From: Gracilariopsis chorda | Lineage: Eukaryota; Rhodophyta; Florideophyceae; Gracilariales; Gracilariaceae | Length of the DNA stretch: 64,000 bases | Direction: 5' to 3' | Assembly (NCBI GenBank): GCA_003194525.1 | Contig: NBIV01000072.1 | Coordinates: 62,001 to 126,000, forward strand | Shown here: piece after piece, positions 8,249-64,000 of the stretch | Position numbering within the stretch: position 1 is the first letter of the stretch | Layout of the letters: every line of letters begins with the position of its first letter | The notes under the pieces: generated by a model | Told to the model about the DNA's origin: nothing | The model's database searches: none | What the model saw: only the letters and a program-made list of their open reading frames with translations | Translations under genes and position numbers: made by a program

Positions 8249-8443
8249 ACGGCAGTGGACACGGCACTCGGAGGTGTTGTGGGTTCCCTATGCGTGGAAG
8301 GTGCACCAAGGTCCTCGCCATCCTGCGGGTTTTGGGAAACGCTTGTCTATTGGGACACGTGGCATGAAGGGCCGTGCTCGATGGGTGCGAGATTGTCCGG
8401 GCCATGTTGGTCGTTCAGGTGGTTGTAGTAATGGGTGCGTAGT

Positions 8444-9045
8444 TTAGATACTGTTGTAGGAGTCCTCTTGCAGAAGTAATGCTTGCCGGACGTGGTTCGC
8501 GAATGACTGTATGCTGGGTGGAGGATTGCCGGTTAATACAATTGCGAGTGTGGTGAAGTCGGGATGACGACGTAGCCCTTGAATCATGAAGTTGACTGCA
8601 GTTTCTTCGTGTTGAATATTGAGGTAACTCGCATTGCTCATCTTAGTCTTGATGGTTTCGTGTTGCTCTACATATTTGTCAAGGTCAGTTCCTGGCAAAA
8701 AGAGGATGCTTCGTGCTTGGCTTCTAAGATCTTGTGATTTTGGCGATTTTTGTTCCCGATGTGCGACTCGATGAGTTGGAGAATCTGGAACGGAGAAAGT
8801 TCGACAAAGTCGCCTGTTATTTTGGTTTCTATAGTCTCTGGAATGTTTTGGATGATAAGCGATTTGATTTTGTTGATTTTGGTGGTTTGAAGTTCTTGCT
8901 GAGCGGGGTCGACAGCCGGGGGGACAGGATCAGTGGTGAGCAGATTGGAGCCTTCGAAGAGTGACGTGTTGATGATCAGTGCAGATTTCCAGAATGGGAA
9001 GTTGTTGTAAGACAGCGCCAGAAGTTTAGGTTGGTCATTGGACAT
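8444..9045 (-). pseudogene. Copia Gag, frameshifted
   Basis: Two overlapping frames (8668-9045 and 8444-8698) give a Gag-like protein. The N-terminal part (LSYNNFPFWKSALIINTSLFEG) resembles the retrotransposon Gag N-terminal domain of copia elements, and the second frame carries the UBN2-like helices. A frame change near 8690 breaks it, and 8249-8443 up to the protease is out of frame. No intact zinc knuckle was seen. Confidence 0.8.
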
Positions 9046-24645: not shown

Positions 24646-24655
24646 AAGAGGGGAT

Positions 24656-24873
24656 TGTAGCCGTCTCTGGCTTTATAGCGCTGAACGGAACCCAAAAAGG
24701 CTACTTAAACCGTAGTTGTAGGTTACAATAGCGTAGGTATCTTATCAAATGCTTGCAGTTCCCAATTGGAGAACAAGGTAGTGGCATTTAAGCCCCAAGA
24801 ACATCGCCTCTCAATAAATCGAGGCATCGAACCTCACCTTTCCATCGACGAACAACTCGCGTAGTTCGCCACA
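24656..24873 (+). repeat. 3' LTR of element H
   Basis: 218 bp, TGTAGCCG to TTCGCCACA, preceded by the polypurine tract near 24645-24655. Confidence 0.88.
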
Positions 24874-25010
24874 CAGAGGCGGGCAATCGTGTCAAATGTT
24901 GACCGTGGTGGATAGCGTTTCGAGAACAGTATTTAGCTGGGAAGTGACATAAAGTTGGTTGGCGCCAGATTGTTGGAAATGCATGTTGGGGGACGATTCC
25001 TGATGAGAGC
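24874..25010. repeat. 137-bp direct repeat X, right of element H
   Basis: Same length as 19468-19604 and about twelve differences. It starts directly after the H LTR and leads into the G/T-rich minisatellite, so this copy is probably in the original sequence context. Confidence 0.85.
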
Positions 25011-26160
25011 AGTTTGAGCGGGCGGCGGTTGTGGTGACGGTGGTTTGATTTGACGAGGGTTGTGGTGAGGGTAGTTGGTGTCAACGACGATTGGTGATGA
25101 GCATAGTTTGAGGTGACTGGGGTTGTGATGGCGGCAGTGGGTAGTGGTAGCGGTTGGTGATAAGAATAGTTTGAGATGAGGACGGGGGTTGTGGTGAGGG
25201 CAGATGGTGGACACAGCGGTTGGTGGTGGTGACGATTAGTGGGAAGGGCAGTTGGCAGTCTGTTGCGGCAGATTGTTGCAGATGCTGGTGGGGAAAAGTA
25301 GAGTAGAGACAAAAGACGAAAGGGGCAGAAGATGAGGATTGGTGGTGGTTGAGGGTGGGGCGGTGAGGAGGTCATTTGACGTTGTCGGTGGATGATGGTG
25401 GGGGATAGTGGCATGGTCAGGGTGGTGAATGGGCGTGGCGTCTTTGGTGGGGGTGGTAGATGGCTGTTGGTGTATGGTGGTGGAAACAATGTGGTGATGA
25501 AGGCGTTGTGGTGGCTGGGTGTTCATGCTTATTTGGTTGACGGTTTCTGAAGGTGATGATGGATGATGTTCGGTGCAGTTTACACTTCATGGGAAGAAAG
25601 GTGGATTTGTGGCATGTTGGCAGTAGGACAGAGTGGTAGTGCAGAGTGTGGTACTGACGTTTGAAGTTGGTGTCAAATTTGGGTGGTTGCCGGTGGCGTA
25701 TCAAAATTAAACGTGATGTTCGGGGCAAGGTTGTGTTCAGTGCGGTTGACGAAGACACCAGATGGTGGCTTAAGGGGAGTCACTTGGGCCAGGTGGGTCG
25801 GGACAAATTAGCTGGAGGCAAGATGATAGTAATATGTGTTGATGGAGGTGACTGATAGTGAAGACGGCATTATGCGTTGGCAAGGTGGTTATGGGGGTTG
25901 CGCATGGCGGTTGGTGGTGAAGACAGCGATTGATGGTGACGGAGATTGATAGTGAAGGCGATTGGTGATGACGCCGGCTTTGTGATGACGACGATTGGTG
26001 ATGACGCCGGTTGTGGTACGGGCGGTTGTTGGTGACGATGGTGACGGTGGTAGCGGTGTTTGGGGAGACGGTGGTTGGGGGTGGTTGGAAACGGGCGTGC
26101 GAGCAGTTGGCGGCGCGGACATATGGGAGGGGACAGGATGGAGGAGAAATTTGGTGGTGC
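25011..26160. repeat. Degenerate G/T-rich minisatellite
   Basis: The plus strand is made of loosely repeated GGTTGTGGTGA, GATTGGTGATGA and AGTTTGAG blocks in units of roughly 70-100 bp, with strong G/T over A/C bias. The minus strand consequently has several long overlapping open frames (24788-25489, 25236-25526, 25417-25758, 25889-26311) rich in Pro, His, Thr and Ser. Open frames in several registers at once are what such a repeat produces by composition; I do not call a gene. Confidence 0.75.
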
Positions 26161-28610
26161 AGGCATGAAAGGTCAGAGCAGGGAGCGTGTGGCTGCTGGC
26201 GGCCTTAGAAAAAGAGATTGGTGCGGCGCCAGAGAGAAGAAGATTGGCGAAGGCGTCTTCAATTACATCGATTTCATGGCGGTACGTGCGTTGATGACGG
26301 CCACTTTTCATTCGTACATCAATCGCTGATAAGTTCGGTTATTGACGAGTGTTTGCCAAGGCTTTCAATTCAAGTGAGTAAGAGGGCAACCTTTGGCGGA
26401 GGCTCTCTCCCGGGAGAGTTGGCGAACGGATCCCGTGGCATAGTTGCGATTCGAAGCGCGCAACTTGAATACCAGAGATAATGCATGACCTGTCAGCCAC
26501 ACACAGTTCTGAGGATTGCATGGCGGCATGCCGCGTGACGAAAACATGCTCAGGCTGATGCAAACGCTAGCGGCTAGGTCGGGCGTCGGGAACCGGGAGG
26601 GCGCTCTCGATATAAAAGTTGGACACTGACGAGCATCCAACCTGGAATTTTTGCCGAGCTCTAACAAATGGGTACAAGTCGTGCCGCAAAAACCCCCCAT
26701 ATTTCCCATGCTTGGATAGGCTTGCCTTTCAATGTGTACGACAGTTGAGATGGGAGGCAAGATTGACAGCCAGTGATGGTCCGCTGCAGCTGATCGTACT
26801 ACATTCCAGCGGAAGCCTTCGCAGTCCTTCGTATGGCGGGACTCTTCGCTATTGTCTTCTCGTGCATTGCTCATTCTCTCTTGGGTCCTTGATTGTCGAG
26901 GACCGCACTAGTGCATCATGTGCCACAGCTGGTCCTTTCTTCTGGCTGTCAAGCTTGCTTCCTCACGAAAGACAAACCGTGTCAGCCTTCTCTGTAACCA
27001 TGCCAGGCACTTTTCTCACTCTTACCTTCACGAGGATACCTATCTTTGGCGCTTGAATAGCGCTTTTCGGTGCTCTGGTGGGCCGAGCAATCCAGGCTTT
27101 GTTGGTGGGCATGGTTTGATCTCCCGTATGCAGCCAGTTATGGATGCCAATCTGATGCACAGACTCTTTAATTGTGTGTTCCGGGTCTTACATTGTCACA
27201 TTCGTCAAGAAAAGAGTCTCAATCAGCGTTTTGAGTTTGTAGACCACGAGAATTTGCCCAATGGTATATTGTTTGGCGTTCAGATTTTGAACAATGAACG
27301 ATGAACCAATTGTTTTTAGTCTACCACCAACACTACCAGTGCCACGCCATACATCGTGCAATGCAAAGTGATCTACGCTACACCCATGCAAACAAAGCCA
27401 TTTCTTGCGAAGACCATCAGGACATCTAGATATTCTTATGACGTAAGATGTCATTGTGTGGCGAGGAGTGCCCTGCTTGGGAGGATAATTATTAACCGCC
27501 TTCGTCAAGGACTTAATAACTCTATCCTGAAAGAATGAAAAATCTACCTCATGCATTGGCATCAATTTGTTTATTGACGTTACGTTGTGAGCAGGTGAGT
27601 ATTCCAAGATACCGCGAAGACGTGCGCGGAAGGTGCAGATGACGAAACACACGCGAATTGTTGAGTTTCCGTCTGAGAGAGCAACTTTTTTCTTGAAACC
27701 CATTTATTCGCACACCTTTTGAAACAAATGTGAAAACATTAAAATATTATGCTCCTCCCCTAAGAACTGTTCAACATCAAATACGTCGGAATTTTTTCAA
27801 TTCGTCAGTTCATATGTTTTACATAAAATCAAAAATTTCGCTTCTCGGCACATGTGTAGACCACATTCGCATCAAACCTGGGCATTGCAACGGCTCAAGG
27901 GCCAGTGCATTGTTACCCTCGCTTGGCGGAACTTGCCCGTCGTTACGTGGGTCTTCGGCACAAGACCCAATGAAAGCTGGCTGGCCCGAACTTTTGCCAT
28001 CGTGAAGGGCGAAGCAAACCCTCACCGTAACTCTTGAATTCAACTGCCAGTCTGACCTTCTCACAAGACCAAGATTCCGAGGAACTCTCTTCTGTCGTCA
28101 GTCGACGCCCGAGCGCACGCCTCGACAAAGAACTCGTAGAAAACCCTTGCCTGAGGAATTTTTGACCAGCCCTTTTTGTCGAGCCTGTTCAGTTAAATGG
28201 CTCGCCATGATCAACTCTGCTTCCGTGCATTGATCCGAACGCCCAACAGGTGGCCATCGCTCTATTTCCAACATTTGAACTTTTCCGCTAGCATTGTGCC
28301 AGTCTCCACACCAGCCCCTCACGACAAGAAGGCGTAACTTCTACCTGCCTCTTCCTCTTCATACAAATCCTTTTCGCCTTGCTGCCTCGCCAACCGTCTT
28401 CAACAAGCTGCGGTGTCCAGAAAATCAGGATCTGCACCTCCTGGACCAGACCCGTCGAAGTTCTCCTCCCCCTTTTTGCTTCTGAACACTCCCCCGACAA
28501 CGGTTTTGCTCCTTTAACTCAATTGGAGCTCTCTCGCGAAGTGTCTGTCCTACATAAAAGCTCCATCAAATATAAGTTCGTTTTCGATCAAAATTTGGAC
28601 GTGTCCTCTT
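26161..28610. other. No recognisable gene
   Basis: Frames of 60-170 codons exist (26365-26874 minus, 27188-27703 minus, 26619-27056 plus), but none shows motifs I recognise. The 171-codon minus frame at 27188-27703 is the longest candidate; it has no signal peptide or domain I can name. Confidence 0.4.
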
Positions 28611-42857: not shown

Positions 42858-43244
42858 TGTGGGCGCCATCACGGGACTGTGACGCAGGGGGCCAAAAAGT
42901 TGTAATAATAAAAGCCAAAAGGGTGCTCTTCGTAGCTCAAAGCCCCAAAAAAAGTTGAAAACAGTGGGATCAAAAGAACTAAACCCAATCGATGAAATAA
43001 AACAACACTAGGGAGAGCAAGAGGCTCAATCCCCAAATAAAACTTCTTAACTTCTTGTTGAAACGGCGAGCAACCCAAGAATTATGTCAAGGATCACTAA
43101 GGGTCAGAACCTCGGCTTCCGGTCAGACACTCCGGATGTGAAGCGGATTCTGCAGCCTACCTACCTCTGCACTAACCAGAAGCAGGCGCATACAATCCTT
43201 ACAGGGCTTCCCGAGGAGAGCTACTGACAGTGGGATATGCTTTC

Positions 43245-44072
43245 TGAGGTGCAATGCCGCAAAAGGGGGAAAAACACCGAAAGACGTTCGGGATCTTCCT
43301 CTCACGAGGTGAACCCAGTTGAGTAGAGCCCTCCCAGAGCTGTCACGGCGAAGCCGGTTTGTAAGACCAGGGACACCTGTCGCGACTCGTGCAGGGAGGT
43401 GAAGGCGAAGAATCGGTATCCGCGTGAGCGGGGTGTGATCCTCAGTAGAGGTATGTTTCCACGTAAGTGGGGGTGTGTGAGCGGATGTGCACACGAGGGC
43501 CGCGGGTAGCAGGATGTGCTACCCTAAAAGTGGGAAAAGGAAGGGCGAAGAGGAGGAAGAGAGGACGAAGTGAGTCGCGAGAGCGACGAACAGATACGGC
43601 AATGCCGGTGGACAGGATTCCCTATACAGGGCGAAACACCAATATGATTGGAACAGTTATACTCCCGAGGATGGGCTTCTTTAGATGTGCAAGGGGGTTA
43701 GATGTCCCGTGGTTTACGGCGTTTCCCTCCAAGGAGGAGTAGAGCACGCGCGCAAGCGGCAACAACTAGAGCCAATTCCCCAGGTTGGGGTCTCTTGTTT
43801 GGGAAATTTTACTGGTGCGACGGCAGTGCGCCGTCGCATTAAGTACTAGCTTCCCAGAAATGGGTCTGAAAATAATAAATATTATTAACTAAAATACTCC
43901 ACATTTCGTGGCAACATCCACTACTGTGGCCAACCGCCAATTGGCCCAAAACCGTTTCCCACGTGTCTATATCCACCATAGTGAGGCGTAGTTCATATAC
44001 ACACTACACAACCGATAATATCAGGAAAGCGTTCAAGTACCAAAAATCCCTCCCTGAGGGCGTTGCACTACA
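43245..44072 (-). repeat. 3' LTR of element E (828 bp)
   Basis: It starts TGAGGTGC and ends GCACTACA. About 3-4 percent different from 52330-53158. It contains palindromes such as CCTCCAAGGAGG (43726-43737). The frame 43123-43494 crosses from C into this LTR and is not considered a gene. Confidence 0.93.
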
Positions 44073-44328
44073 TATCCCCCCCCTAAGACGGGAAAACGAC
44101 CGCGGACGCGGAGGGTTCCCAGACGAAAATGGGTGATAAAAGCGCGTACGCCGTCTCCGGTTCTTCTTTCCTGGCATAGCCGGCTATTGTAGTATAGTGT
44201 TGTGGGGAGCTAGCTGCTCCCTTGAATAAACTTTCCCGTTTTGAACGGTGATTCTCGTTTGAGTTCCCCGTCTTCGACGGACCTTGCCTGGTTATCCTTT
44301 CCTATCGCCCTCCGTTTGCGTGGCAACG

Positions 44329-47307
44329 TTACCCAACTTGGGGATTTACCAGCGTGGCTGGAGCTGCAGTTCCCGTTTGACGGTGGTATCGCACGACCTG
44401 CAACCGTGGGAGGTGTTCGATTGGCTCCCACGTATCCCCACTGGGGTCATACCCGTACCAGTGGACGCGGTATTGTAGAATACCATCCTGGTCCCAGGTG
44501 TGTGCGACAAGTCGGTCTACTACGAACTCTCCTTCGTAGACCTGCCGGCCGTGCCGGGTGGTGGTTGTACTCCCTTGCGAGGGTTGCCCGCTGTGCGGTA
44601 TGTTGCCCCTCATCCGGGTTGTCGGCGATGTCTCTGGCGTTGCCGTGCGCTGTCCTAGTGGCTGCTGCTCATGCGGGAAAATATCCCTCAAGAGGGTGTG
44701 TGGCGTCACCGTTTTCACCGGCAAGTCATTCCCCAGAGGGGTGTCGTTGTTCTCGTCTTCACGGTAGGCCGGGCGGACCGTCAACCGGCGGGGGACTTGA
44801 ACTCCGCGAGTGCGGTCTTCTTCGCGAACCGCGAGCTTGCGGGGTCTTTGCCGCGTATGCGGGAACGGCGTTTGTGACATCCCCTGCGGGGTCCCGTGCG
44901 ACACGGTGATTGGTAAGCGTTCCGCCTCCCTGCCAGGTGCACGAGCGCTCTGCACCATACGTTCCGGCGACGCCGTGGTGTCCCAGGTTACTGACGGGTT
45001 GCCTGGGGTTAACTCCGGTACACCGCTATTTTGGTCAAAATTCCCCTTTGGGGGGTGCCGGGCAGGTGCCGATGACACCCTTTTCAGGGAAATTGCCGCT
45101 AAGTGCGGTGCACCATCTCCATGAGGAGGAGCAGCGTCCGGTACGACCGGTTTCGAGCGTGCGATGGCGCGCGTTATTCCCGAGTTCCTCGGTTCTTCGC
45201 CGCAGCGTTGCGGGGGTTGGTGCAAATTATTCCCCGGAACGGGGGCTTCAATTCCGTCGACGACGGGAGGCGTTTCCGGCGCTTGCGGGCCAGGGCCTGA
45301 AGCTTCGGCTGCAGCTTGGCTGCCTTTTTCCCCAGGTTGGGTGTGGGGATTTCCCAGCAGCGCTGGTGTATCTGGGCGCCTCTTCTCCGCAGGGCGCGGG
45401 TCTGATCGACCTGATTGAACCGCTTCCGCGGGGACTTCCGCCAACGGCGGCTTCGAGGCATCGCCCTGCTGAGGGGATTGAGGGCGATTGTCGCCGTACT
45501 CCCGTAACTGGGATCCCTCCCTGACAGGGGTGTGCGGTAGCTGCGCTTCAACTTCCCGTGTAGCACGGTATATTTTCCGCGTTTGTGGCGATGCCTCCGG
45601 GGATGGATCGGGCGATTGCATTTCCGCTGCTGCGGTATTGGAGGGAGGCTTCTCGTTTTCCCGTGACAAACGGTGTATTTGCCGCTTTTGCGGGGCCTGC
45701 GCGTCTGGTTCCTGTTGCACAGCACTGCCCGGGAACGGGGGATTAGTGTCGCGTGACATACTCCGTGCTCCACGGTCAGTGTTCCGTATGTTACGGTGTG
45801 TTTCCCGTTGCGACGGCGATATCGTTCCTCAAAAACGAGTATTCTCCTCCCCCTCCTTAGACGGAGCGGCGGGATAAGGGATAACATTCCCCGCCTGGCG
45901 GGTATAGATGCGCGCCAGTGGGGCGGACGTGGTAGGGGCGGGCGCTGAGGGGCCCGAATTACCCGGCTGAGCCGGTGAGTCCGACAGAGTCGGTAGGTCT
46001 GAGAGTCCCCGGCTGGGGTTTGGTAGTACCGTAGGTCTAGTACTCCCGGATGGTTCCGGTATGGCAGAGTCCGTAGAAACGGGGTTGCCTGGATCCAGGA
46101 CTACCTCTGACGAGGGAGGAGGGGCAAGGACAACACGATCACGGGAAATCCGTTCGTGCGTGTCGCCCATCTCTACCACGACAGTGTCGGTGTTAACCGA
46201 AATGAACTTGAAGGGTCCATCCGCCACAGGCGAGAGTTTGTGACGCTTCTCCCGTTCCGGGTTGTAGTATTTCTTCCTGATGAAGACGTAGTTATTTGCC
46301 CGAATCGGGGGGGTCTTTCCTCGCAAGCGAGCGTCAAAATCCCACTTGTAAGCGGCTTGGGCCAGTGCCATAGACTTCCGCGCAGCGGGGACCGGCTTGG
46401 AAAGCCATTGCTTCCATTGCTGCCGGTAGATACCCACAGATGGGAAATTGTCCAAGGTAGCTTGGGGTTCCAGCGCAACAGGCGGGGGTGTTCTAGGTAG
46501 AACCAACTCGAATGGCGAAACTCCGGTAGTCCGGTGTACATGCGTATTGTACGCGTAGGTTACCGCATCAGCGTAGAGATCCCAATTCGTTGGGTGGTCA
46601 GTGACGTAGGAACGTAACGCCGCGAGTAACGTCCGGTTAAACCGTTCAACTTGCCCATTACACTGGGGGTGGTAGGTAGTCGTGAACAAGTTCTTGACAT
46701 CCAGGATGCGACAAACATCCTGGAAGAACTTGCTCACGAACTGCTTCCCGTTGTCAGAGAGCACCTCCACAGGGGGACCGTAGACAAACATCCAGTGCGT
46801 CACCAGAGCCTGGGCCACCGTGAGAGCGGTTATCCTCCGAAGGGGGACAGTCCGTACCAGCTTAGAAAAGCGGTCGGTAATGACAAGTAGAAACTTGTTT
46901 CCACTTTTCGTGGTGAGTAATGGTCCGAGAATATCGATTGCGATAAACTCGAGCGGCGCCCTTGCGGGGAATAGTTTCATCTTCTTCGCATTTTTGCGGA
47001 GCTTGACGCGATTCTTCGCGCATTCGCTACAAAACCGCACGGTTGCGTAGCAATCCACCGCCATGGCGGGCCAATAGAAATCCCTTCGCAGGGTTAGGTA
47101 GAGTTTCCTCCCACCTGGGTGACCTCCAATGGGGGCGTAGTGTGATAGATGTAACACCCGCGACTGCAGGGAAAGAGGTACCACAATCTGTGGGCGGGCT
47201 TCGACCTTCCTTACGAGGTAGCCTTTGTCGTTTACCCCGAAAGGGAGATCTTCACCACCGTTAAGACGGGCACGAATCCTCGTACAGAATGGGTCGCCGA
47301 ATTGTTC
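44329..47307 (-). pseudogene. Integrase, long linker and chromodomain of element E
   Basis: One register, interrupted by TGA at 45829. Integrase zinc part: HLSHYAPIGGHPGGRKLYL and FCSECAKN. Core: FIAIDILGPL, EVLSDNGKQFVSKFF and NGQVERFNRTLLAALRS, so D-D-E is complete. GPY/F-like module: RANNYVFIRKKYYNPERE. Then follow roughly 450 residues of Pro-, Arg- and Gln-rich linker on both sides of the TGA. A clear chromodomain closes Pol at 44380-44541: YEGEFVVDRLVAH, YRVHWYGYDPSGDTWEPIEH. Chromodomains bind methylated histone H3 and steer integration. Such a long linker before the chromodomain is unusual in my knowledge of the family. Confidence 0.92.
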
Positions 47308-49045
47308 TCAGATCATTTCTTCCGGTGATACCGGTACAAAGTTTCCCGGTAACGGGTTCTCAGATTCATCTCGCGATGCGAGTAGTTCGTCAAAATCAGC
47401 ATCCTTGTCCCAGTTTTCTGGCCCAGCCTCGACGGCACATTCCGGATCATCCGGGTCTATGGCCATGAAACATGGGACTTCATCATCCTCCGTTGGGAGT
47501 GCTTCCCCACTTGTGGGTAACCGCGACAAAGCGTCGGCCTGGGTGTTCTGCGCAACCTTTTTATAAATGACTTGAAAGTCATATTCCGCGAGGCGGAGTC
47601 TCCAGCGCATGAGGCGTCCCGACGGGTCGGAGATATTCATTAACCACCTCAATGAGGAATGATCCGTGTACACGGTGAAGTGAACTCCCATAAGGTAGGG
47701 GCGCAGAGTGGTCATCGCCCATACGACGGCGAGGCACTCTTTCTCCGATACGGAGTAGTTCCGCTCATGAACATTGAGCGAACGTGACCAATAACCAATT
47801 GGATGTCGTTCCCCCTCGGGGGTGGTTTGAAAAGAGCACACCCGACTTGGTAGTCGCTCGAGTCCGTATCTACGGAGTATGGCAACCAAAGTTTTGGGAG
47901 ATGTAGGATTGGAGCTGATGTTACAGCCTCCTTCAAGGAGTTAAAAGCTTCCGATTGCTCGGGCGTAAATGTTCCCAGTTTTGGGGGGTTCCCCTTTCGC
48001 AACAACGCGTTCAGGGGCGCCGCAGTATCCGAAAAGTTCGGGATAAACCGTCAATAGATGTTGACCAGCCCCAAAAAGGAGCGCAGTTCCGTTTGAATAC
48101 GGGGTTCTTTCTCCTCAACGAGGGATTTGACTCGAGCTTTCTCGATCGCTAACCGTCCAGGACGGATAATGTGACCCAGATACTTCACAGTATCTGTGAA
48201 GAACTCGCATTTCCTCAACTTGAGGGTAATTCCCGCATCGCGGAGTACGGTCAGCACGTCTCGGACGTGAGTGAGATGGTCGTCCAACGAGTTGGAGAAG
48301 ATGATAATATCATCAAGGTAGACCAGACAACTCCGCCACTTAAAGCGGTTGAGTAGAATATCTACTGCACGCTGAAAGGTGGCGGGGGCGTTGGTTAACC
48401 CAAATGGCATCCGCTTGAAGCGGTACGTTCCTGCGTGGCAGGTGAATGCGGTTTTGTCGCGATCCTCCTGTCTGACAGGTACTTGCCAATATCCCCAAAT
48501 GGCATCAAGGGCCGTGAACACGGTGGCGTCTCCAAGGGAGTCAATGCACTCGTCCATACGAGGGATAGGGTACGTGTCCCTAACGGTCACGGCATTGAGC
48601 CGGCGGTAGTCGACACAGAACCTCCAGGTTCCGTCGGCCTTTAAAGCCAGTACAACTGGGGATGCCCAGGGTGATTGAGCGGGCTCAATCACACCTGCGC
48701 GGAGCATCTTGTCCACTTGGGATTGCTCCTCTTCCCTAGCTTTCGGACCTGCCCTGTAAGGGGGTTGTGCAACCGGTCGCGCACCGGGGATTAAATCGAT
48801 CCGGTGTTCCGTTGCGTTAATCTCGCCAAGCGAGCCATCCCACATTGTGGTGAGTTCCCGTAACATGGTACGGAGTTTGTCGCTGTGCGACTCTGGCACG
48901 TGGCTGAAGTCCAGCGCTTCAAGTGCCTTTTCCGGATCAATCCGGTCGTTGGTCGATGGGGCATTGTCCTGTGTAACAGGTTTGATTCGCAATTCCGAGT
49001 TACTCGGTATGTTCGACGCTGGAGTAGCAGTTTCCTCCCCTCCTT
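47308..49045 (-). pseudogene. Reverse transcriptase and RNase H of element E
   Basis: RT at 48051-48992 is well preserved: KMLRAGVIEPAQSPWASPVV, RFCVDYRRLNAVTVRDTYPI, FKRMPFGLTNAPATFQRAVD and the catalytic VYLDDIIIFSNS. A TGA at 48051 sits where Arg is usual in YRRF-type motifs, and the frame continues to RNase H (47712-48005). A one-base shift near 47835 leads to 47308-47889 (GYWSRSLNVHERNYSVSEKE, TVYTDHSSLRWLMN, NTQADALSRLP). Another TGA at 47308 precedes the integrase in the same register. The RT sequence is packed with the hairpins described separately. Confidence 0.93.
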
Positions 49046-50035
49046 AGACTTGACGTCTTCGGACGTCGGGGCGAACTCCTCAGAAGAGGTGGTAACTCCG
49101 AGTACATCGGCGGCTGTCATATTCGTTGGCAGCATTCCCATAGGATGCGGGGTTACACTCCCAATTACTTGGTGTTTTACCAGATACTGGGGGTGTTTGC
49201 CAAGTTTGGCAACCAATATCCGGAAAGAAACATCCGGGGAAATGGAGACAATTCCATTAGCCAGCGCCAGCTGGGATTTCTCGTACAACGAGGCGAGGGG
49301 TTGTATAACCCGAGGACCGTGTTGACGGGAATTTACCTGCACCCAGACTTGGGACTCAGGCGGTATAGAAACAGAGGCAGCGACGCGGAGCTTGGTGGAC
49401 TGGTAGGACGCGGGAGGTGGGTCCTGCGCAGCAGGAAGCGGAACTTGTTTCCGAGAGGACCGCTTTAGCGGGCGGAGAACAATCGGAACCGACGATCCGT
49501 CGTCAAGTTCCACACGCCTGAGGCGAGGCCTGATTGCGTCGACAAATCTGTCGCAGTAATCATATCCCAGTATGACTTGTGCTGCCAATGAACGGCAAAC
49601 GATGAAGTCCAACTTCACCACGGAGGTACCAAGTCTCACGACGAGGTTCACTGTGCCCACCGTTTGTAACGGGTTGTTGTTCGCATCCGAAATGTCGGGG
49701 ACCGCGTCAGAGCGGATACGCGACCGCACAAGCGGGGGTAACAATGATTCCACAACAAAGTTGGGGCCTGCACCTGTATCCAGGACGGTGAGAAACCTCA
49801 CCATAAACTGGGGGTCAAGGCCAAGGTCGGCATAGACCTTATAATTGCGCTTGGCCAAGACCAAGACTCTACCGGGAATCCGGGGATTTTTACTCCGTAT
49901 CCACGGGCGACGCAACACACCGAGGTGCGCAGAGTCCGCGTCAGCGGTGTCTTTCCTCGAGAGGACTTTCACCGGGGAGCGAGGCGAGGACGCCTCGGGC
50001 GCCAACAGCCTCGTTCTTGAGGACGCCTCTCCCAA
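49046..50035 (-). CDS. Protease region of element E
   Basis: The frame 48791-50035 encodes an aspartic protease with the active site LTVLDTGAGPNFVVESLLPP and a flap-to-end part (AQVILGYDYCDRFVDAI). The RT frame is entered by a shift in a G-run near 49045, beyond which this frame is spurious. Gag ends 17 bp upstream. The shift could be a mutation or the element's normal frame change; a second intact copy would tell. Confidence 0.82.
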
Positions 50036-50052
50036 AGGGGAGACTCCCTCAG

Positions 50053-52227
50053 TTAGTTTTCCGCCTTCGGCGGTGGGTTGGTTTCCTCGACAACGAGTGC
50101 TTCATCCCGTTGACGGGGGCTTCTATCCGCATAAGCGGGGGTTGCAACGGATGGTTGCGTGATCTCCCGAATCGGGTTGTATGAATCTTGCCACGCACGC
50201 GGGGTCTGTGGTAGGGCGTGAGAAAAGTCCGTTTTAGCACGGATGTAGGAAGCCGTCGGGACGGAACGTTTCTCCTCTGGAGTGAGAGCCTCATAATTTG
50301 CCACCACCTTGGCCATATCCTTCAGTGAACAAATACACTGAGGAGAGGTATGGCCATGGGCATAACACAGGTGGCAAATGAGAGCCAGCACCGCGACACG
50401 CGGATTATTATTCCGAGTATCGGAGAAGCGAACCGCAGGGCGGGTGTCAGTCCATCCAGGCCGTTGATAACGGGATTGACCGTTTGAAAACGGGAGTCGT
50501 TGGGGTTGAACCCGACTGTTACCACCGTACAAAACGGGGTCTTCCGTTCCCGTATCACGGGTCATCTCCGTCGTCGACGGCAAATCACTGGTGTGTATCG
50601 ACACCCCATCCTCTTGCATTAAATGCACGGTATCAAATCCCTGTCCAGGGTTCCCATCCGCAGTGAGCAGGAGTGAGGAAGCTTCGCTTTCTAGCAACAA
50701 CGCCTTGGCGGATTTAGACCGATTTTTCGGAGTTCTTGCACGAAGTGCATCCTCTTTCGCTCGGGCGTGTTGGACCAGCTCGAGATAGGTGATCCCCCGC
50801 TTGTCCTCCCGATAACGGGTAACTAAACTCCGGATTGCCGGGTCAAGACCATCGATGAACATGGTACTGCGCTCCCCAGCGGGGTATACGTTACCACATC
50901 TGTGGAAAGCCTTGTTAAGGCGCACCGAGTAATCGGTCTCGGTCTCTCCAGCACGCTGGCGTGTATCTCGCAAAGCGAGGATAGCCTGCTGAATAGCGGC
51001 GTTTGTGGCGTAGGAGCGCAGTAGATACTGCACAGCCTCCGGCCAGCAAGTAACTGCTCCCTCGGAGGCACGAGAAGATCCTCTGACAGAGTTGTATTGG
51101 TCCTCCGCCATTCCCCGTAAGAAATACGGTAAAGCCAAATAGGCTTGTCCCTCATTCATACCGAGGATATCGGCCTCCGCTACAAAGCGGGATAGGAAAT
51201 CCAGTACTAGGACTGGGTCCTCTCCAGTAAAATACTGGTTGCGGAGCGAGAGCTGCATTCGCTTAATGCATTCTCGCACCTTTCCCGTACCACGGGGCGT
51301 ACGTCCAAGTGACGAGTCTTCGAGCCGGTAGTACCGGTATGATAAAAGCTTCCGGTAATCCGGGTTTGTCGGTTTCAATTCCCGAAGACCGGGGTGTCTT
51401 CTCCCCATCTGGCGGGTTCGGACCACACCTTCAGTGGCCGATGACCGCTTCGAGCGGGAGGAGTAGCCTCGCTTCTCGTCCTCCGAGTCGGAGTCCGAGG
51501 AGCTCGAGCTAACCGAATGGTTTCGGAATGAATCCGACGATGTTGAAGAATCGGAGTCCGAATATTTTCGGTGGTGTTTCCGTCGATGACGGCATTTCTT
51601 CTTCCGAGCAAGCTGGTCGTTGCGCGATGCCTCGTTTACCGGATCATCCGGGGATGGTTTGTCCATCAGGACGAACTGCTCTAGCTTCTCCAGGCGGGCA
51701 CCAATCCGATCAAATCAGGCTTCAACTCCTTCGATGAGGGTGGCGGGTTATCCCAAACTCTCCAACATGGAGTTGACGTCAGACCGTAAAATACAGAGTT
51801 CCTCGGCGACCTCCTTTACGGGGGTTGCCAAGACTACCTCTTGGAGGGATTTTAGTTCCCCTACAAGGGTGTCATGGGCGGTCCACAGAGCGCGGAACTG
51901 GGATTCCAGGGAAGTCCCTTGGGGGGTGTTATCGCCCGTTCCACGGGGGCTTGAAGCCGCGACAGCGGGAGCAGGCCAGGGTGCCTGGGGCACTGCGGCA
52001 ACAGCCGTAGTCGATGCTGCATTCCCCTGCGGGGGTGATAACGAGGGCAAAAGGAGGTTCCGGGGTTCCCGGTCGGGGGTATCATTCCGCGATGAGGCGG
52101 CGCCAGTACGGCTGGAACTTGTCCTTATAGGGATACGGGGTACGAACCGAACTTCGGAAGTGTGCGCGTTGTCGCGGGAGCGACTACACGTAACCACTGG
52201 CTCCGCATCGGAGGGATTTCTCGACAT
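50053..52227 (-). pseudogene. Gag of element E, two nonsense codons
   Basis: From 52227 the frame runs through a low-complexity N-terminus and helix (FRALWTAHDTLVGELKSLQE), then TAA at 51748 and TGA at 51715, then DRIGARLEKLEQFVL and a Ser/Asp- and Arg-rich stretch. The capsid-like part follows (YFTGEDPVLVLDFLSRFVAE, YSVRLNKAFHRCGNVYPAGE, FIDGLDPAIRSLV) and a standard zinc knuckle CHLCYAHGHTSPQC. Both stops fit single C-to-T type changes. Gag packages the RNA. Confidence 0.88.
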
Positions 52228-52329
52228 GAGAAAATACCGTTACGACGGGAAACGATCACGGAACTTCCGGTAAATAAAAGCAAACCCCGTAAGAGGGAAA
52301 AAACCCGATTCTAGGTCGGGAGACCACTT

Positions 52330-53158
52330 TGTGGTGCAATGCCCCAAAACGGGGAAAAACACCGAAAGACGTTCGGGATCTTCCTCTCACGAGGTGAACC
52401 CAGTTGGGTAGAGCCCTCCCAGAGCTGTCACGGCGAAGCCGGTTTGTAAGACCAGGGACACCTGTCGCGACTCGCGCAGGGAGGTGAAGGCGAAGAATCG
52501 GTATCCGCGTTAGCGGGGTGTGATCCTCAGTAGAGGTATGTTTCCACGTAAGTGGGGCTGTGTGAGCGGATGCGCACACGAGGGCCGCGGATAGCGGGAG
52601 GTGCTACCCTAAAAAGGGGGAAAAGGAAGGGCGAAGAGGAGGAAGAGAGGACGATGTGAGTCGCGAGAGCGACGAGCAGATACGGCAATGCCGGTGGACA
52701 GGACTCCCTATACAGGGCGAAACACCAATATGATTGGAACAATTATACTCCCGGTGATGGGTTTCTTTAGATGTGCAAGGGGGTTAGATGTCCCGTGGTT
52801 TACGGGGTTTCCCTCCAAGGAGGAGTAGAGTACGCGCGCAAGCGGCAACAACTAGAGCCAATTCCCCAGGTTGGGGTCCCTTCTTGGGGAAGGTTTACTG
52901 GTGCGACGGCAGTGCGCCGTCGCACTAAGTACTAGCTTCCCAGAAATGGGTCTGAAAATAATAAATAATATTAACTAAAATACTCCACATTTCGTGGCAA
53001 CATCCACTACTGTGGCCAACCGCCAATTGGCCCAAAACCGTTTCCCACGTGTCCATATCCACCACAGTGGGGCGTAGTTCATATACACACTACACAACCA
53101 ATAATATCGGGAAAGCGTTCAAGTACCAAAAATCCCTCCCTGAGGGCGTTGCACTACA
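52330..53158 (-). repeat. 5' LTR of element E (829 bp)
   Basis: TGTGGTGC to GCACTACA. Just inside, the minus strand reads AAGTGGTCTCCCGACC, a possible primer-binding site (TGG start). Several differences from the 3' LTR lie in hairpin arms or loops. Confidence 0.93.
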
Positions 53159-53838
53159 CTTTCACTCTATACCCAAGCTGGCCCTTTGCAGGAAAGGTTG
53201 CACGGTACGTTGCCTGTGGATAGCTTCCCGTCAAGTACTTCCGTCCGGTAATCACCAGGTCTTTCAACCGACACCGTTATCCGAGCAAAGCTCCGGTGGG
53301 GCTCACAGACGACAGAAACACCTTTGGTACACACTACCCGTCTCCCGTCCACGCCTAAGACGCTTCAACCTGTCTTAGCGACGGTACTTCCCCACCCTAT
53401 TGGACAACTAGCGGCACACGCCCCACTAGAAGCCCTTTAGCCAGCGGCGAACGCCTCACTGGTTGTTGATGATAGTTGAAGTGGCTGAAGGTTGATAGGG
53501 GGTGGGGCTTAGATGTTGGTCGATTGTTGAGGTGAGTTCAGACCGAAGTCCGAAGCTCAGAACCTCTTTTCATAGTGTTTAGAGGCACTACAAACGAGCC
53601 AAATACGCATTTCTACTTGATAGTTACTCATGTGTGCGTCTAGGTTACTCCATTGGCTTCTAAAGACCTCTGGAGCTGCACAGTAACCAATAATAAAGCG
53701 ACAATTTGCGCCAGCATCACTAAAATACTGTAGTCTTTGCTGGGCCAACAAAGCATGCAATGTGCTAGACACTACTGGAACATTCTACACGTGTTTTCCA
53801 GCAATGTCTGGCACATTCCGCAACATTCGCGACCGCCA

Positions 53839-56813
53839 GAAGCCTCTCTTCGTTTCTGGTTGGCATAGTACACCTTTCGAGCTTGTGCGACTGCCAAGTT
53901 ATCCCTTGCAGCAGACTGAAACATCTTACGTCGTTCCAGTGTTTCAATTGCAGCACCACACTGTTCACCAGTTCCTGTGTCCGTCCTGAATTGCGACTGT
54001 GGCAAGAATCCGAGGTCCACCTCGAACGGAGTGAGCTCTGTGCTTTTGTGTCTCGTAGAGTTGTATTCGAACTCCAACGCGCTTAGCATCAAATCCCAAT
54101 CCTTGGGATTCTTCTTGATAACCTGCCGTAACATCTGACTCAAAGTACGGATAGTGTTCTCACTTTGTCCTTCCGTCTGCGGGTGTCCCTTAGTTGCCAT
54201 GTTCTTCTCGATGTTCAAAATCTCTGTGATACCTTCAAAATACTTCGCTGTGAATAGAGAATCTCTGTCCAAGATGATCTTGATGGGCATTCCGTGTTTA
54301 GAAAATACGTTATCAAACAAAATTTGAACTGCATCGGCGGAAGCGATTTCCTTATTCGTAGGAATGAAAATGCCGCGTTTCGATAGTTTCTCAACAATGA
54401 CAAATACTGAGTCATTCCCTCTCTCTGATGTAGGGAATTCTGTCAAGAAATCCATCGTCAATACCTCCCAACATCGGTTAGGAATTGCATGAGGTTGTAG
54501 CATTCCCTTTCTTCTCGAACGTTCTTCTTTCTTATTTTGACAATCATGGCAAGAACCAATGAACATAGTGACTTCTTTGTACATTCCTCTCCAGTAGAAG
54601 TGTTTCGCGCACTGATAGAAGGTTTTCTCAACTCCAAAATGAGCGGATGTGTGGACTTCAGCAATGACTTCGTTTCGTAGGTTTCTTGTTTTTGGTACGA
54701 AAAGTCTTTTGGAGCCTGCTACAGTCCAGTACAGCTTGTTGTCCTCCATTTGGTAGTTGCCACCATACATCTGTACCTTCTTCGAGTGTGGTCCTTCTTT
54801 CGTCAAAAGCCAAGCAATTAATTCCGTGGACCATTTTTCCTTCGTGTAGCTCTCCTGTATTCTTCGTACAGGAGTACTGTCTTTCCAACGTAGCGCTTTC
54901 AACATCACTGAGCTTTCCATTTTCCTGCTCAAAGCATCCGCCGCACCGTTCTTCGACCCTGATAGACGCTCCACTGTGAAATTGTAGCTCTCTAGCTCAT
55001 CTATCCATCGCATCTGTCTACCTGTCAGTTTGGCCTTCGACTGTAGATATATGATTGGTTCATGATCTGTTTTCAAGATGAAGGGCCTATCTCGGAGGTA
55101 GAATGCCCACTTTCTTAGTGCAATCATTACTGCTAAGAGCTCTTGATCACCTGTGTCCCATCTCGTCTCTGTGTTGGTCAATCTGTGAGAGAGGTATGCG
55201 ACTGGATGACCTTCTTGCTCCAACGTGGCTCCCACAGCATACTTCGACGCATCAGTAGTCAGGACGAATGGTTTGGCCGACGAAGGGTGTCTTAGAAGAG
55301 GTGCATTTGTTCACAACTGCTTAGCATTCTTGAACGCATTCTCTTCTCCTTCTCGCAATCTGATCTCCTTCTCGCGCATTATGTTGGTCAAAGGCAATAC
55401 AACACCAGAGTAGTTCTTCATAAAGCGTCTGTAGAAGTTAGCAAGGCCTAAAAATGTTTGAACTTCCTTCACATTCTTTGGTGTGGGCCAGCCTACAACT
55501 GCTTTCACCAAACGTCTCTGTGTGCTTATGCCCTTGGAAGTAACGTTGTAACCCAAGTACTCTACTTCTTCATGTCCAAAGCTGCACTTGCTCGGTCGTA
55601 GGTAGAGTTTGTGTCTTCGTAGAATCTCGAATACACGTCTCAGATGTCCCTTGTGTTCTTCTGCCGTGTTACTGTACATCAGAATATTGTCCAGATACAT
55701 TACCATGCATTCGCCAAGAAGCTCTTGAAATACACTTGCTGGTAGTCTTGAAAACGCTGCTGGAGCGTTCGTCAAACCAAAACACAAGACACGCCATTCG
55801 AAAGAACCAAACCGGGTCCTAATAGCTGTCTTATGACAGTCTTCTTCTTTCAGTCTCGTCTGATGATAACCCCAAATGAGATCCAGCTGGGAAAAGATTG
55901 TTTTCCCAGCTACCTGATCGATAGTCTCATCAATCAGAGGGATAGGGCTTGAATCAGGAATCGTGATCTTATTCAAAGCCCTATAATCGCGTACCAGGCG
56001 AAGATCGCCATTCGCTTTCTTAATAAAGAATACTGGCGCGCCGAAAGGAGAAGATGAAGGACGAAGCATTCCTCTATCAATGTACTTCTGCAGTTGAACT
56101 TTCAGTTCTTTCAGCTCCTTTGGCAATAGGAGAATCACAGGTCGTACGGGAGGGGTTTCTCCTGGTCTCTAGGTGATTTCAAAATCCATTCCTTGGCTTG
56201 TTGGGATTTCTTTTGGCAATTCCTCACGAAAAATGTCTTGATACTCTGCGATTATATCTTCGAAGTCTTTGCGGGCTTCCACTTTTTCCAAGTGGGATGG
56301 AATACTTTCAGTAATCCGTGCCATGTATAAATCCCAGTTGCCATTCTTCAATACACGAGCCATGTTCTTAAAAAACATTCTATTCACAAAGGTTGTGGTG
56401 CTGGATTTTGAACTCTTCCTTGGTAGAACCTTCACTCGTGAGCCGTCCCGTTTCGTTAACGTCAAGGCGTTACTGGACCAGTTAACCTCTGGGTTGTGGT
56501 TCGTTAACCATGATCTTCTGATAAATAACAGTGGTGTGTTGTCTTCGCTGTCCATATCTAGAAGAAACACACTTTCTGTAGCCAAGCATCCCTTGATGTT
56601 CAAAACTGCTGTTACTTGACCTACGACAGGCCTAACAGTCTTGTCCCCAAGTTCCACTTTGACGTTTTCTGTGTTCTCAATCTCAAAACCAAACTTCTTA
56701 GCAGTGGCCAATGCCAAGAAGTTGTGGGACGCGAACGAATCAAGTACCACTGTCACAGGATGTCCCCCAAAATGTGCGTCATACATCCGGTTTTTCTCTT
56801 CTGCCACAGTCAT
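53839..56813 (-). pseudogene. Protease, RT, RNase H and integrase of element B
   Basis: One register with TAG at 56169 and TGA at 55311. Protease site: TVVLDSFASHNFLALA (D-S-F-A instead of D-S-G-A). RT: LQKYIDRGMLRPSSSPFGAP, FSQLDLIWGYHQTRL and MVMYLDNILMYSN, where the second catalytic Asp is Asn. RNase H: AKPFVLTTDASKYAVGATL, FILKTDHEPIIYLQ, AADALSRKM. Integrase: HFGVEKTFYQCAKHFYWRGM with CHDCQNKKEE, then VLTMDFLTEFP, IKIILDRDSLFTAKYF and TEGQSENTIRTL (triad present). It ends at KRREA where element C is inserted. Confidence 0.93.
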
Positions 56814-61980: not shown

Positions 61981-62024
61981 GTATATACTCCATCGCGCGA
62001 GGGTATTGGAGTTGACTGGAAATC

Positions 62025-64000
62025 ATGCCAACTGCGACAAGACAAGCAGGGTCTGGTGCGCGAACGCGCGATGACAACGCTACCGTCAAGCAGACCATCG
62101 TTGAGACAGTCGAGGCACCTCGGCTAGAAGACATCGCGACCGCGAACTTCGTCCAGTTCAAGGAAGCGAGGGAGATCTATGAGCGTCGTGTCGCCGAGAA
62201 GAACGAAGAGCAATCTGTTCAGATTCCGCTCACAAGCTACCGCAACTCGATCGACAAGTCAATCTTGGAGCTGCTGGTGTTAGCCAACTGGGTGTCGGCC
62301 GACACAGTGGAGGATATCACCGAGGAGGACCTGCGGCAGTGCGTCGAAGAGCGCGCACGCGTGGATCCCGCCGACTACGATCTGGCCCGTATCGAGAGAG
62401 AGCTGCAAGATGTGAAGCTGGCGAACGCCGACAAGACCGCTAACCTCCAGCGGCAGGTGTGGCGCCTTTGCTTACAGTACAATGAGAAGCTCCGTCACTG
62501 TGGCTACGACGATTTTGTCAAGCGGCAACCGAAGTTGGCCGTTCGGCATATCATGAAACGCATCACTCATGCCGATCTGCGGACCCGCATGATGCTAACG
62601 CTCCGACTGCGCAAGGACGAGTTGGAGAAGGACTTCGGCAAGTTCATGCGAGAACTCGCGGAGGAAGCCAAGGTCATCGATCGACACGAGTCGGCCAAGG
62701 GCTACAGGGCTGAGCAGTCCGACTCCGATCGAGATGATGTGTACGGTGGGGGGTCTGGCAGTGCCAGCACCCACCGCAAGAAGCGCCGGGGGCGGAATCG
62801 CACGCCCGGGCGCGAAAAAGAGGACAAATCGAGATCAGGACAGAGTGACGGTGAGAAAGCGGCTACCGGTGGGTCCCAGCAGGGCAGCCGGAAGCGCCCG
62901 GCAGAACTGCCGTTGTGTCTGCTGCCGCGCTGTGGTAAGCGGCACTACATCCGTAACTGCAACCTGGCCTCGGATGAAGAGAAGACGAAGTATCTCGCAG
63001 AGTACTTCGACAAGCGCCGCAAGAGTGAAGGTGGGAGTTCGTCGGGTAAGAAGATCGGTGCGATCTCGGGCGCCGATGACCGGGACGACAATTCATCGCT
63101 GTTCAGCGCTTCGTTTTGCAACGGCGCTGTGGAGAGCACCTTGCTCGCCGATCAAGGCTCGGACACGAACGTGATCTCATCTGCCTTGCTCAAGGCTATC
63201 ATGAAGGCGGATCCGAATGTAAGGGTTGAGAAGCTCAAGGAAGTCATGCTGTTTGGCAACGCGGCGACGTCCGTCCCCCCGATTCGCTGTAGTCGATCGA
63301 CACAATCGGATATCGAGTTGAGGATAAGGCATGGAGAGAAGCTCCTGCTGCGTCGGGTGCGTTGGCTAGTCAGTGATGATGAGCTGGCTCATGCTTACAT
63401 CGGCCGACATTTGTTGGCTGCTTTGGGGTTGGACAACCGTGTCATGCTGGCAGCTGCCCGTGACCGCCTGGGTGGTAGCGTCGATGTACCTGGCCTGTTG
63501 CAGGCCAGGGGACAGAACGACGACCCCAGTGCGGGTGGTGCCACCTCAATAGGGAGCATGCTCCGCGAACGAGGGTTCGATTGGGGCAGTGCTTTTCATC
63601 GAGAGGGCGGAGAAGGAGGAGGCGACCGCCTGGAAGATAGCGACGTGTACGTCGATCTCGGCGATGATCCCCCTGAGGCTCTCGACGCAGCGCTCGACAA
63701 GATGCTCGAACGAGCGCAATCAAATGGCCTGAGCCCCACAGGAGTGGGGAGGCTCTCCACGATGATGAAGGAGTACCGTTCGGTTTTTCGGCTCCGGCTG
63801 GGAAAATCCCCACCAGCTGACGTCGAGCCGATGAGGGTACGCCTGGAACCAGGCAAGCGGTCGGTTAGAGTGAAGGCACGACGCTACTCGCCGGACCAGC
63901 GCCTGTTCTTGGACAAGTACGTGGACGCGCTGCGAGAGATGGGCTTCGTGGAAGACATGCCCTCAGCTGCGTGGCAAGCGGCACCGCTGCTGGTCCCCAA
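62025..64000 (+). CDS. Gag-protease-RT polyprotein of element F, partial
   Basis: The ATG at 62025 opens a frame of 658 codons without a stop to the window end. Residues 1-230 are helical, charged Gag (RRVAEKNEEQSVQIPLTSYR, FGKFMRELAEEAKVI). Residues 235-295 are basic and low-complexity. A zinc motif CX4CX3HX4C lies at residues 298-312 (CLLPRCGKRHYIRNC). The protease active site is at about 376-385, DQGSDTNVIS, with D-Q-G in place of D-T/S-G. RT begins after about residue 595 (MRVRLEPGKRSVRVKARRYS). It is the only retroelement polyprotein in the window without any nonsense codon so far, so F may be young. Confidence 0.9.
   Translation, partial: MPTATRQAGSGARTRDDNATVKQTIVETVEAPRLEDIATANFVQFKEAREIYERRVAEKNEEQSVQIPLTSYRNSIDKSILELLVLANWVSADTVEDITEEDLRQCVEERARVDPADYDLARIERELQDVKLANADKTANLQRQVWRLCLQYNEKLRHCGYDDFVKRQPKLAVRHIMKRITHADLRTRMMLTLRLRKDELEKDFGKFMRELAEEAKVIDRHESAKGYRAEQSDSDRDDVYGGGSGSASTHRKKRRGRNRTPGREKEDKSRSGQSDGEKAATGGSQQGSRKRPAELPLCLLPRCGKRHYIRNCNLASDEEKTKYLAEYFDKRRKSEGGSSSGKKIGAISGADDRDDNSSLFSASFCNGAVESTLLADQGSDTNVISSALLKAIMKADPNVRVEKLKEVMLFGNAATSVPPIRCSRSTQSDIELRIRHGEKLLLRRVRWLVSDDELAHAYIGRHLLAALGLDNRVMLAAARDRLGGSVDVPGLLQARGQNDDPSAGGATSIGSMLRERGFDWGSAFHREGGEGGGDRLEDSDVYVDLGDDPPEALDAALDKMLERAQSNGLSPTGVGRLSTMMKEYRSVFRLRLGKSPPADVEPMRVRLEPGKRSVRVKARRYSPDQRLFLDKYVDALREMGFVEDMPSAAWQAAPLLVP

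What the first reader, a model, noticed from the sequence alone, without database searches (positions are those of the whole stretch)
43245..53158. Chromovirus E is built on a dense array of short GC-capped hairpins
Seen: perfect palindromes of the form CCC/CCG-N(2-5)-GGG/CGG with 4-5-bp arms recur every 20-40 bp in much of the element, in LTRs, gag, pol and linker alike. Arm sequences vary (CCGTT/AACGG, CCCTC/GAGGG, CCGC/GCGG, CCTGC/GCAGG), so this is not one copied motif. Element A around it and its sister B share the genome but not this pattern, so genome composition alone does not explain it. Inference: either the RNA genome is selected for regular local structure (packaging, protection from silencing or nucleases, translation pacing), or a mutational or micro-insertion process writes hairpins into this lineage. 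I know of GC-cluster and double-hairpin elements in fungal mitochondria, but not of such a whole-element nuclear pattern.
Basis: partly seen in the sequence, partly recalled or inferred. Interest (0 to 1): 0.88.

Follow-up and report, generated by a model that had tools for sequence, protein, structure and literature searches.

The report
Retrotransposon built from uniform mini-hairpins
A mobile genetic element, probably from a red alga, is studded from end to end with nearly two hundred tiny stem-loops of one fixed size and design; evolution appears to preserve their stems, so they probably do a job for the element that I found described nowhere.

Summary
E (43245-53158, minus strand) is a Ty3/Gypsy chromovirus with 5-bp target duplications. 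It carries 184 uniform hairpins: stem 4-5 bp, loop 3-4 nt, outer CC or CT. Of exact size (4 bp+4 nt or 5 bp+3 nt), CC-capped ones number 125 against 4.6 in dinucleotide shuffles; GG-capped ones are near chance, 6 against 4.2. Synonymous shuffles give 1.3-3.7 per frame against 14-35 observed. The array stops at the LTR ends. Pairing stops where a loop would fall below 3 nt, and longer stems are mostly avoided, as real single-stranded hairpins would behave. Among copies, stems collect private mutations like other DNA but few inherited changes (3 of 772 stem sites against 112 of 3906 outside), also at third codon positions. This indicates purifying selection on stems. Not found: clear excess of compensatory change, or tolerance of G-U pairs. 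An A-rich 3' flank on the sense strand suggests full-length RNA as the functional molecule; Gag packaging or compaction is my best but unproven guess. Mutational writing, dyad protein sites and composition fit worse.

The parts
43245..53158 (-). Chromovirus E, the whole hairpin array: 184 hairpins (arm 4-5, loop 3-4, outer CC or CT) in 9.9 kb
43240..43244 (.). target-site duplication CTTTC, left copy
53159..53163 (.). target-site duplication CTTTC, right copy
43245..44072 (-). 3' LTR (TG...CA), 11 hairpins; 33 substitutions and 1 gap from the 5' LTR
52330..53158 (-). 5' LTR (TG...CA), 13 hairpins
44076..44083 (-). likely polypurine tract (eight G on the sense strand) next to the 3' LTR
   Evidence: read; assignment from general knowledge of LTR elements
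44329..45828 (-). open frame: long linker plus chromodomain (44401-44526); 37 hairpins, 24.7 per kb
45829..47307 (-). open frame: integrase (H2C2 zinc domain, rve core); 21 hairpins
48051..49043 (-). open frame: reverse transcriptase (RVT_1); 13 hairpins in 48051-48790
48791..50101 (-). open frame without Pfam match; 22 hairpins
50053..51714 (-). gag frame with a CCHC-type knuckle (by eye) and homologues some of which carry PF03732; 31 hairpins in 50102-51714
45763..45816 (.). typical run: CCGTGctcCACGG, CCGTAtgtTACGG, CCGTtgcgACGG, starts 21 nt apart
43440..43470 (.). LTR pair CCTCagtaGAGG / CCACgtaaGTGG, starts 19 nt apart; the second is also found in a 61%-identical distant LTR
46251..46261 (.). 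hairpin with a paired change between relatives: CCCGttcCGGG here, CCCTttcAGGG in the C619 copy
46452..46465 (.). hairpin with a paired change: CCAAGgtagCTTGG here, CCAACgtagGTTGG in the C619 copy
47082..47093 (.). the one exact loop inversion between relatives: CCCTtcgcAGGG / CCCTgcgaAGGG

Best explanation
E belongs to a chromovirus lineage whose entire genome is an array of one modular unit: a 12-13-nt mini-hairpin with a C-G closing pair (second pair mostly C-G), 4 bp plus a 4-nt loop or 5 bp plus a 3-nt loop, an A-rich 3' flank on the element's sense strand, and about 20 nt between neighbours in runs. Shown: the units exist far beyond chance and beyond coding constraint, obey single-strand loop limits, are kept short, and their stems show the deficit of inherited change expected of purifying selection while loops drift. 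Inferred: the functional molecule is the full-length sense RNA (the A flank follows the element's sense strand in coding parts, in the LTR, and in an accessory region whose reading frame runs the other way). Guessed: the hairpins are shape-recognised, loop-independent binding or compaction sites for the element's own Gag in the virus-like particle, like dispersed packaging signals but without a loop motif.
For: Cap-specific excess: CC 125 vs 4.6, CT 14 vs 1.4, GG 6 vs 4.2. Inner pairs of CC-N7..9-GG: all four Watson-Crick types 1.45-2.7x. Pairing is at or near chance at gaps of 2 nt or less; outward extension avoided, 4 of 79 vs 17.9 at k = 8 and 2 of 67 vs 14.0 at k = 9 (at k = 7, where extension makes the 5+3 form, 13 of 41 vs 12.8). 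Synonymous-shuffle z 9.7-17.6 in 5 of 5 frames. Linker 44156-45589, 88% identical relatives: stems 3 of 282 sites changed, loops 24 of 109, outside 116 of 856 (hairpins of the window copy); 10 of 332, 28 of 131, 103 of 749 (hairpins of the other). Polymorphism: 9 of 9 ascertainments (not independent) in the 32-copy group give stem vs outside p from 0.0014 to 2.8e-6, third codon positions p from 0.012 to 9.6e-5. Sense polarity: 3' A in 68 of 125 vs 5' T in 18 of 125, p 5e-8; same trend in LTR and C619 extra region. Mean fold z: sense -2.43, antisense -1.79, background -0.5 and -0.2; the sense-antisense difference was not tested. Sharp edges at LTR ends.
Against: G-U pairs on the sense strand are no better tolerated than A-C (0.72-0.77x vs 0.65-0.88x; single-mismatch hairpins 13 G-U vs 23 A-C), which is odd for RNA. 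No clear compensatory excess. Hairpin energy is equal on both strands. Stem conservation is not uniform (hairpins of the window copy): in 45659-46100 stems changed at 14 of 116 sites vs 22 of 190 outside; in the 75%-identical integrase part 18 of 73 vs 144 of 560 and 9 of 60 vs 100 of 447. In the smaller 22-copy group the polymorphism test points the same way, but p is 0.048-0.21 in 4 ascertainments and 0.34-0.68 at third codon positions. Nothing directly ties the hairpins to Gag.
Confidence: 0.5

Rival explanations
1. The hairpins act in single-stranded minus-strand cDNA during reverse transcription (pausing, strand transfer, protection), not in RNA.
For: Intolerance of G-T as of other mismatches fits DNA better than RNA; hairpin symmetry fits either strand; subfamilies are chimeric, integrase about 75% vs most of the rest 91-100% identical, consistent with template switching.
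Against: Mean fold z is stronger on the sense strand (difference not tested); this and the A flank do not formally exclude DNA.
Confidence: 0.2
2. The array shields the RNA from small-RNA silencing, nucleases or antisense pairing; stems are kept short so as not to be cut as double-stranded RNA.
For: Avoidance of longer stems; coverage of coding and non-coding parts; some copies carry an antisense frame.
Against: A shield would not need a cap rule, a strict size and near-absence of inherited stem change; no small-RNA data available.
Confidence: 0.15
3. A mutational process (fold-back template switching by the reverse transcriptase or a polymerase) writes and corrects perfect inverted repeats.
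For: Perfect pairing without wobble; one exact loop inversion, a known signature of template switching (PMC8604942, abstract read); fewer reverse-transcription errors in stems could mimic part of the polymorphism deficit.
Against: Neutral correction predicts frequent paired change of both arms; 0 of 388 stem pairs show it among copies. Cap rule, size limit and 3' A are unexplained. Only 1 of 11 multiply changed loops is inverted.
Confidence: 0.06
4. The motifs are double-stranded DNA dyads bound by a dimeric protein, so hairpins are a by-product.
For: Constant outer CC...GG at 11-13 bp.
Against: Inner pairs covary across all four types and stop at the 3-4-nt loop limit; flanks are not symmetric.
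Confidence: 0.05
5. Base composition, codon usage or repeated copying of one motif.
For: E is GC-richer (0.52-0.60 in 2-kb bins) than the flanking element.
Against: Dinucleotide and synonymous shuffles; arms vary; two GC-0.63 contigs with a related reverse transcriptase have about 1 per kb.
Confidence: 0.01

Closest known systems
Genome-scale ordered RNA structure (GORS) of RNA viruses
   Same: Excess local folding along the whole genome over dinucleotide shuffles
   Different: Here one uniform, size-limited, C-G-closed module in an LTR retrotransposon; as I recall, GORS has no fixed module (only search listings seen)
Dispersed packaging signals (packaging-signal-mediated assembly, PMC6281560, abstract read)
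   Same: Many short stem-loops spread over the RNA
   Different: Packaging signals share a coat-protein recognition motif; here loops are diverse and the constant part is the stem base
Mitochondrial GC clusters, double-hairpin and repetitive hairpin-forming elements
   Same: GC-rich short hairpins in number
   Different: Those are recalled as mobile insertions in spacers (only a listing seen); here hairpins are inside genes, differ in arm sequence and change mostly by substitution
Template-switch mutations at inverted repeats (PMC8604942, abstract read)
   Same: Perfect short inverted repeats; one loop inversion
   Different: No arm turnover seen among copies; fixed cap and size
Chromoviruses of Ty3/Gypsy
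   Same: Gag, reverse transcriptase, integrase, chromodomain, LTRs
   Different: 18 contigs of prokaryote bins with a 33-46% identical reverse transcriptase (not shown to be chromoviruses) have 0-1.7 CC hairpins per kb, another chromodomain element of this genome none in 1.7 kb (L070); E has about 20 per kb

Membership tests
Chromovirus (Ty3/Gypsy) | reverse transcriptase, integrase and a C-terminal chromodomain | tested here: met
   Pfam RVT_1 4e-37, rve 2e-11, H2C2 9e-13, Chromo 2e-10
Chromovirus (Ty3/Gypsy) | LTRs TG...CA with target-site duplication | tested here: met
   828/829-bp LTRs, CTTTC on both sides
GORS | folding energy below dinucleotide shuffles along the genome | tested here: met
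   39 windows of 250 nt: sense mean z -2.43, 59% below -2; background -0.5/-0.2
GORS | structure present in the RNA in cells | not testable with these tools
   no probing data
Dispersed packaging signals | shared recognition motif presented by the stem-loops (usually loop) | tested here: not met
   commonest triloops 4 of 80, commonest tetraloop 4 of 86; loops carry inherited changes about as often as outside in the larger group (12 of 322 vs 112 of 3906). The shared cap is in the stem base
Dispersed packaging signals | binding by capsid protein | not testable with these tools
   needs an RNA-binding assay
GC-cluster / double-hairpin mobile elements | hairpins come and go as insertions | tested here: not met
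   4 gap columns in 3747 against 290 substitutions; gains and losses mostly by substitution. Some indels exist elsewhere
Template-switch product | coordinated change of both arms, loop inversions | tested here: inconclusive
   0 of 388 stem pairs with two Watson-Crick alleles among copies; 6 of 13 or 6 of 9 doubly changed pairs in relatives; 1 inversion in 11 multiply changed loops

The most novel reading that the evidence does not exclude
A retroelement whose whole genome is written in a repeating structural code: nearly 200 interchangeable C-G-closed mini-hairpins of fixed size, read by shape rather than sequence by a protein of the element or host, and kept by selection that acts at synonymous sites. 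That would be a genome-packaging or self-recognition system with no counterpart that I know of or found.
Probability: 0.4. Interest if true: 0.95.

Novelty: new variant of a known kind. Interest (0 to 1): 0.85.

Why it matters
It would be, to my knowledge, the clearest natural case of a long RNA genome built from one uniform structural module under selection independent of its proteins. How Gag proteins of LTR retrotransposons tell their own RNA from others is, as I recall, largely open; a repeated, loop-independent module makes the question directly testable with short synthetic RNAs. The copies also give a built-in test for selection on structure, because private mutations serve as the neutral yardstick. 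My nine searches of open papers listed nothing that by title or abstract start describes such an array; that covers only the held library and those terms.

Tried and rejected
Rfam on 43000-53500 at E 0.1: no match. Viral contigs: no relatives. Prokaryote genome contigs: 18 loci encoding distant reverse transcriptases, used only as hairpin-density yardstick. Compensatory change: looked for, no clear excess. G-U tolerance: looked for and not found on either strand. Codon phase: no strong preference. Structure model of the accessory antisense protein: mean pLDDT 50, not used further. Pfam on it: one match far below its cut-off. The copy set held 5 pairs of loci from the same copy; include them, removes them and is the one to rely on. 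still holds two further pairs of identical sequences (L047/L064, L059/L060) in the smaller group. L031 was dropped from the copy counts. The stretch 45590-45658 was left out, because the two copies differ there by an indel of about 100 bp. Distant relatives: an inverted neighbour in L006 (LTR 61% identical) keeps three identical hairpins but has fewer in all, 8.5 per kb; the L008 neighbour is an 81%-identical gag with stops in all three sense frames, in which stems of the window copy differ at 34 of 256 sites, loops 37 of 113, outside 222 of 1114. A second rise of hairpin spacing near 40 nt is no higher than later bins, so I make nothing of it. In other red algae only proteins, not DNA, were reachable, so the age of the array outside this genome is untested.
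Full report
WHAT IS THERE. E (43245-53158) is a Ty3/Gypsy chromovirus on the minus strand, with LTRs of 828 and 829 bp (TG...CA, 33 substitutions and 1 gap apart) and the duplication CTTTC on both sides. Pfam finds chromodomain, integrase and reverse transcriptase. The gag frame has 50 matches, 6 of them named as Agarophyton chilense and several carrying PF03732; a CCHC-type knuckle is visible by eye. The genome is 91 Mb; 45 matches to the LTR and 150 to the reverse transcriptase are reported, both lower bounds. The host is most likely a florideophyte red alga: of 7 matches to an accessory protein carried by sister copies, the 3 with an organism name are Gracilariopsis chorda (2) and Agarophyton chilense (1). 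That is inference from names.

THE OBSERVATION. Perfect hairpins exceed dinucleotide shuffles by z 5.1-12.9 in the five 2-kb bins from 44001 to 54000; the other 27 bins lie between -1.4 and 2.6. Of 478 hairpins with arm 4 or more, 204 begin with CC and 31 with GG. Restricting to 4 bp + 4 nt and 5 bp + 3 nt, CC caps number 125 against 4.6 expected, CT caps 14 against 1.4, and the other fourteen caps are 0-2.6 times expectation. Synonymous shuffles of the five open frames give means of 1.3-3.7 hairpins against 14-35 observed. Density is 11.7-26.9 per kb in all ten parts, including both LTRs, and falls to 0-0.5 per kb in the flanking element. Non-E flanks of six other LTR loci (L002-L007) have 0-1.5 per kb; exceptions are one stretch between an E LTR and the accessory frame (L003, 19.1) and one that holds a distant E relative (L006, 8.5). 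The flank of L008 is itself an E relative.

GEOMETRY. For CC-N(k)-GG on the sense strand, inner pairs are enriched for k = 7, 8, 9 down to a loop of 3 or 4 nt and are at or near chance at gaps of 2 nt or less; outside the cap, pairing is avoided (4 of 79 against 17.9 at k = 8; 2 of 67 against 14.0 at k = 9), except at k = 7 where one more pair makes the 5+3 form (13 of 41 against 12.8). This is the signature of real single-stranded hairpins kept to 12-13 nt, and it argues against a double-stranded dyad site. All four Watson-Crick types are enriched; G-T and A-C are both depleted. Among hairpins of exact size with one mismatch, 13 are G-U and 23 A-C on the sense strand, against 6.0 and 6.9 expected, so G-U is not favoured. 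Gaps between neighbouring centres are most often 18-22 nt; the median is about 42.

POLARITY. The base after the hairpin is A in 68 of 125 on the sense strand, while the mirror position is T in 18 of 125. The same trend holds in the LTR (A 0.60, T 0.15, n 20) and in the accessory region of the C619 copy (A 0.44, T 0.16, n 25), whose frame runs opposite to the element. The polarity follows the element's sense strand rather than the local reading frame, which points to the full-length RNA. Mean fold z is lower for sense than antisense (-2.43 and -1.79; difference not tested), but single-hairpin energies do not differ.

SELECTION. Between E and the C619 copy in the linker (88% identical), 3 of 282 stem sites differ against 24 of 109 loop sites and 116 of 856 outside; with the hairpins of the other copy, 10 of 332, 28 of 131 and 103 of 749. 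In 47400-50299 (97% identical) it is 2 of 418, 3 of 174 and 74 of 2019 ('outside' leaves out the 3 bases next to each hairpin). Among copies, with same-copy duplicates removed, private mutations hit stems as often as other sites (124 of 772 against 572 of 3906), but changes shared by three or more copies are 3 of 772 in stems, 12 of 322 in loops and 112 of 3906 outside (hairpins taken from the window copy; p 2.8e-6). Taking the hairpins from a copy of the other subfamily (L059) gives 4 of 552 against 87 of 2968, p 0.0014; third codon positions give p 0.012 or lower in 9 of 9 ascertainments, which are not independent. In the smaller group the direction is the same but p is 0.048-0.21, and 0.34-0.68 at third positions. 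Private mutations act as the neutral yardstick. A caveat: if reverse transcription itself makes fewer errors in stems, part of the deficit would be mutational.

RESULTS AGAINST. Compensatory change is not in clear excess (0 of 388 pairs among copies; in relatives 6 of 13 doubly changed pairs by the window's hairpins, 6 of 9 by the other's; chance about one third). In 45659-46100 stems of the window copy changed as often as outside (14 of 116 against 22 of 190; by the other copy's hairpins 7 of 100 against 33 of 225). In the integrase part, which was swapped between subfamilies and is about 75% identical, many hairpins are not shared, and stems differ at 18 of 73 against 144 of 560 and 9 of 60 against 100 of 447. 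Relatives therefore turn hairpins over at long distance, with some clear paired changes but no proof that these are favoured.

MECHANISM. Fixed size, C-G closing pair, free loops and sense polarity suggest recognition of hairpin shape along the RNA. The element's Gag is the natural candidate, in a particle that must select and fold about 9 kb of RNA; this last step is a guess (about 0.3 on its own). A role in single-stranded cDNA is the main rival, because intolerance of G-U is easier to explain in DNA. Template-switch writing, as described for yeast (PMC8604942, abstract read), should leave coordinated arm changes and loop inversions; one inversion was seen among 11 multiply changed loops.

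KNOWN SYSTEMS. Whole-genome ordered RNA structure of RNA viruses is the closest known kind, and its folding criterion is met. Dispersed packaging signals (PMC6281560, abstract read) need a shared recognition motif, which the loops do not show. I file E as a new variant of genome-wide RNA structure, with an architecture I did not find described in my searches (listings only, apart from the two abstracts).

Noticed in passing
window 46557-47400 against L059, L064, L041, L020, L034, L027: Two E subfamilies are mostly 91-100% identical in 250-bp blocks over gag-RT but about 75% over the integrase: recombinant subfamilies.
   Followed up: partly
L069 (C619 copy, reverse strand 1-1040) and L003 2945-3825: Some E copies carry an extra frame of at least 345 aa, antisense to the element, near the 3' LTR; absent from the window copy. 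Homologues in Gracilariopsis chorda and Agarophyton chilense, no Pfam family above cut-off.
   Followed up: partly
G000 C3:381287-383001, C73:268807-270484, C110:211601-213266, C132:107362-108349: E LTRs lie as inverted neighbours 0-50 bp apart in several places; on C73 the two differ (97% and 87% to the query), suggesting insertion next to an older LTR.
   Followed up: no
L008 2337-2339; L006 about 1350-1500: In at least 2 of the 8 LTR loci fetched, an E LTR sits beside an older E relative, so E may favour its own kind as target.
   Followed up: no
window 62000-64000: Probably another retroelement with a long GC-rich frame on the plus strand; it shows only a mild hairpin excess (z 2.6).
   Followed up: partly
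window 5000-9000 and 24000-27000: Strong GC skew of +0.29 to +0.39, not explained.
   Followed up: no
window 46700-46724: A longer inverted repeat inside the integrase frame, arms of 9 bp with a 7-nt loop, unlike the array units.
   Followed up: no
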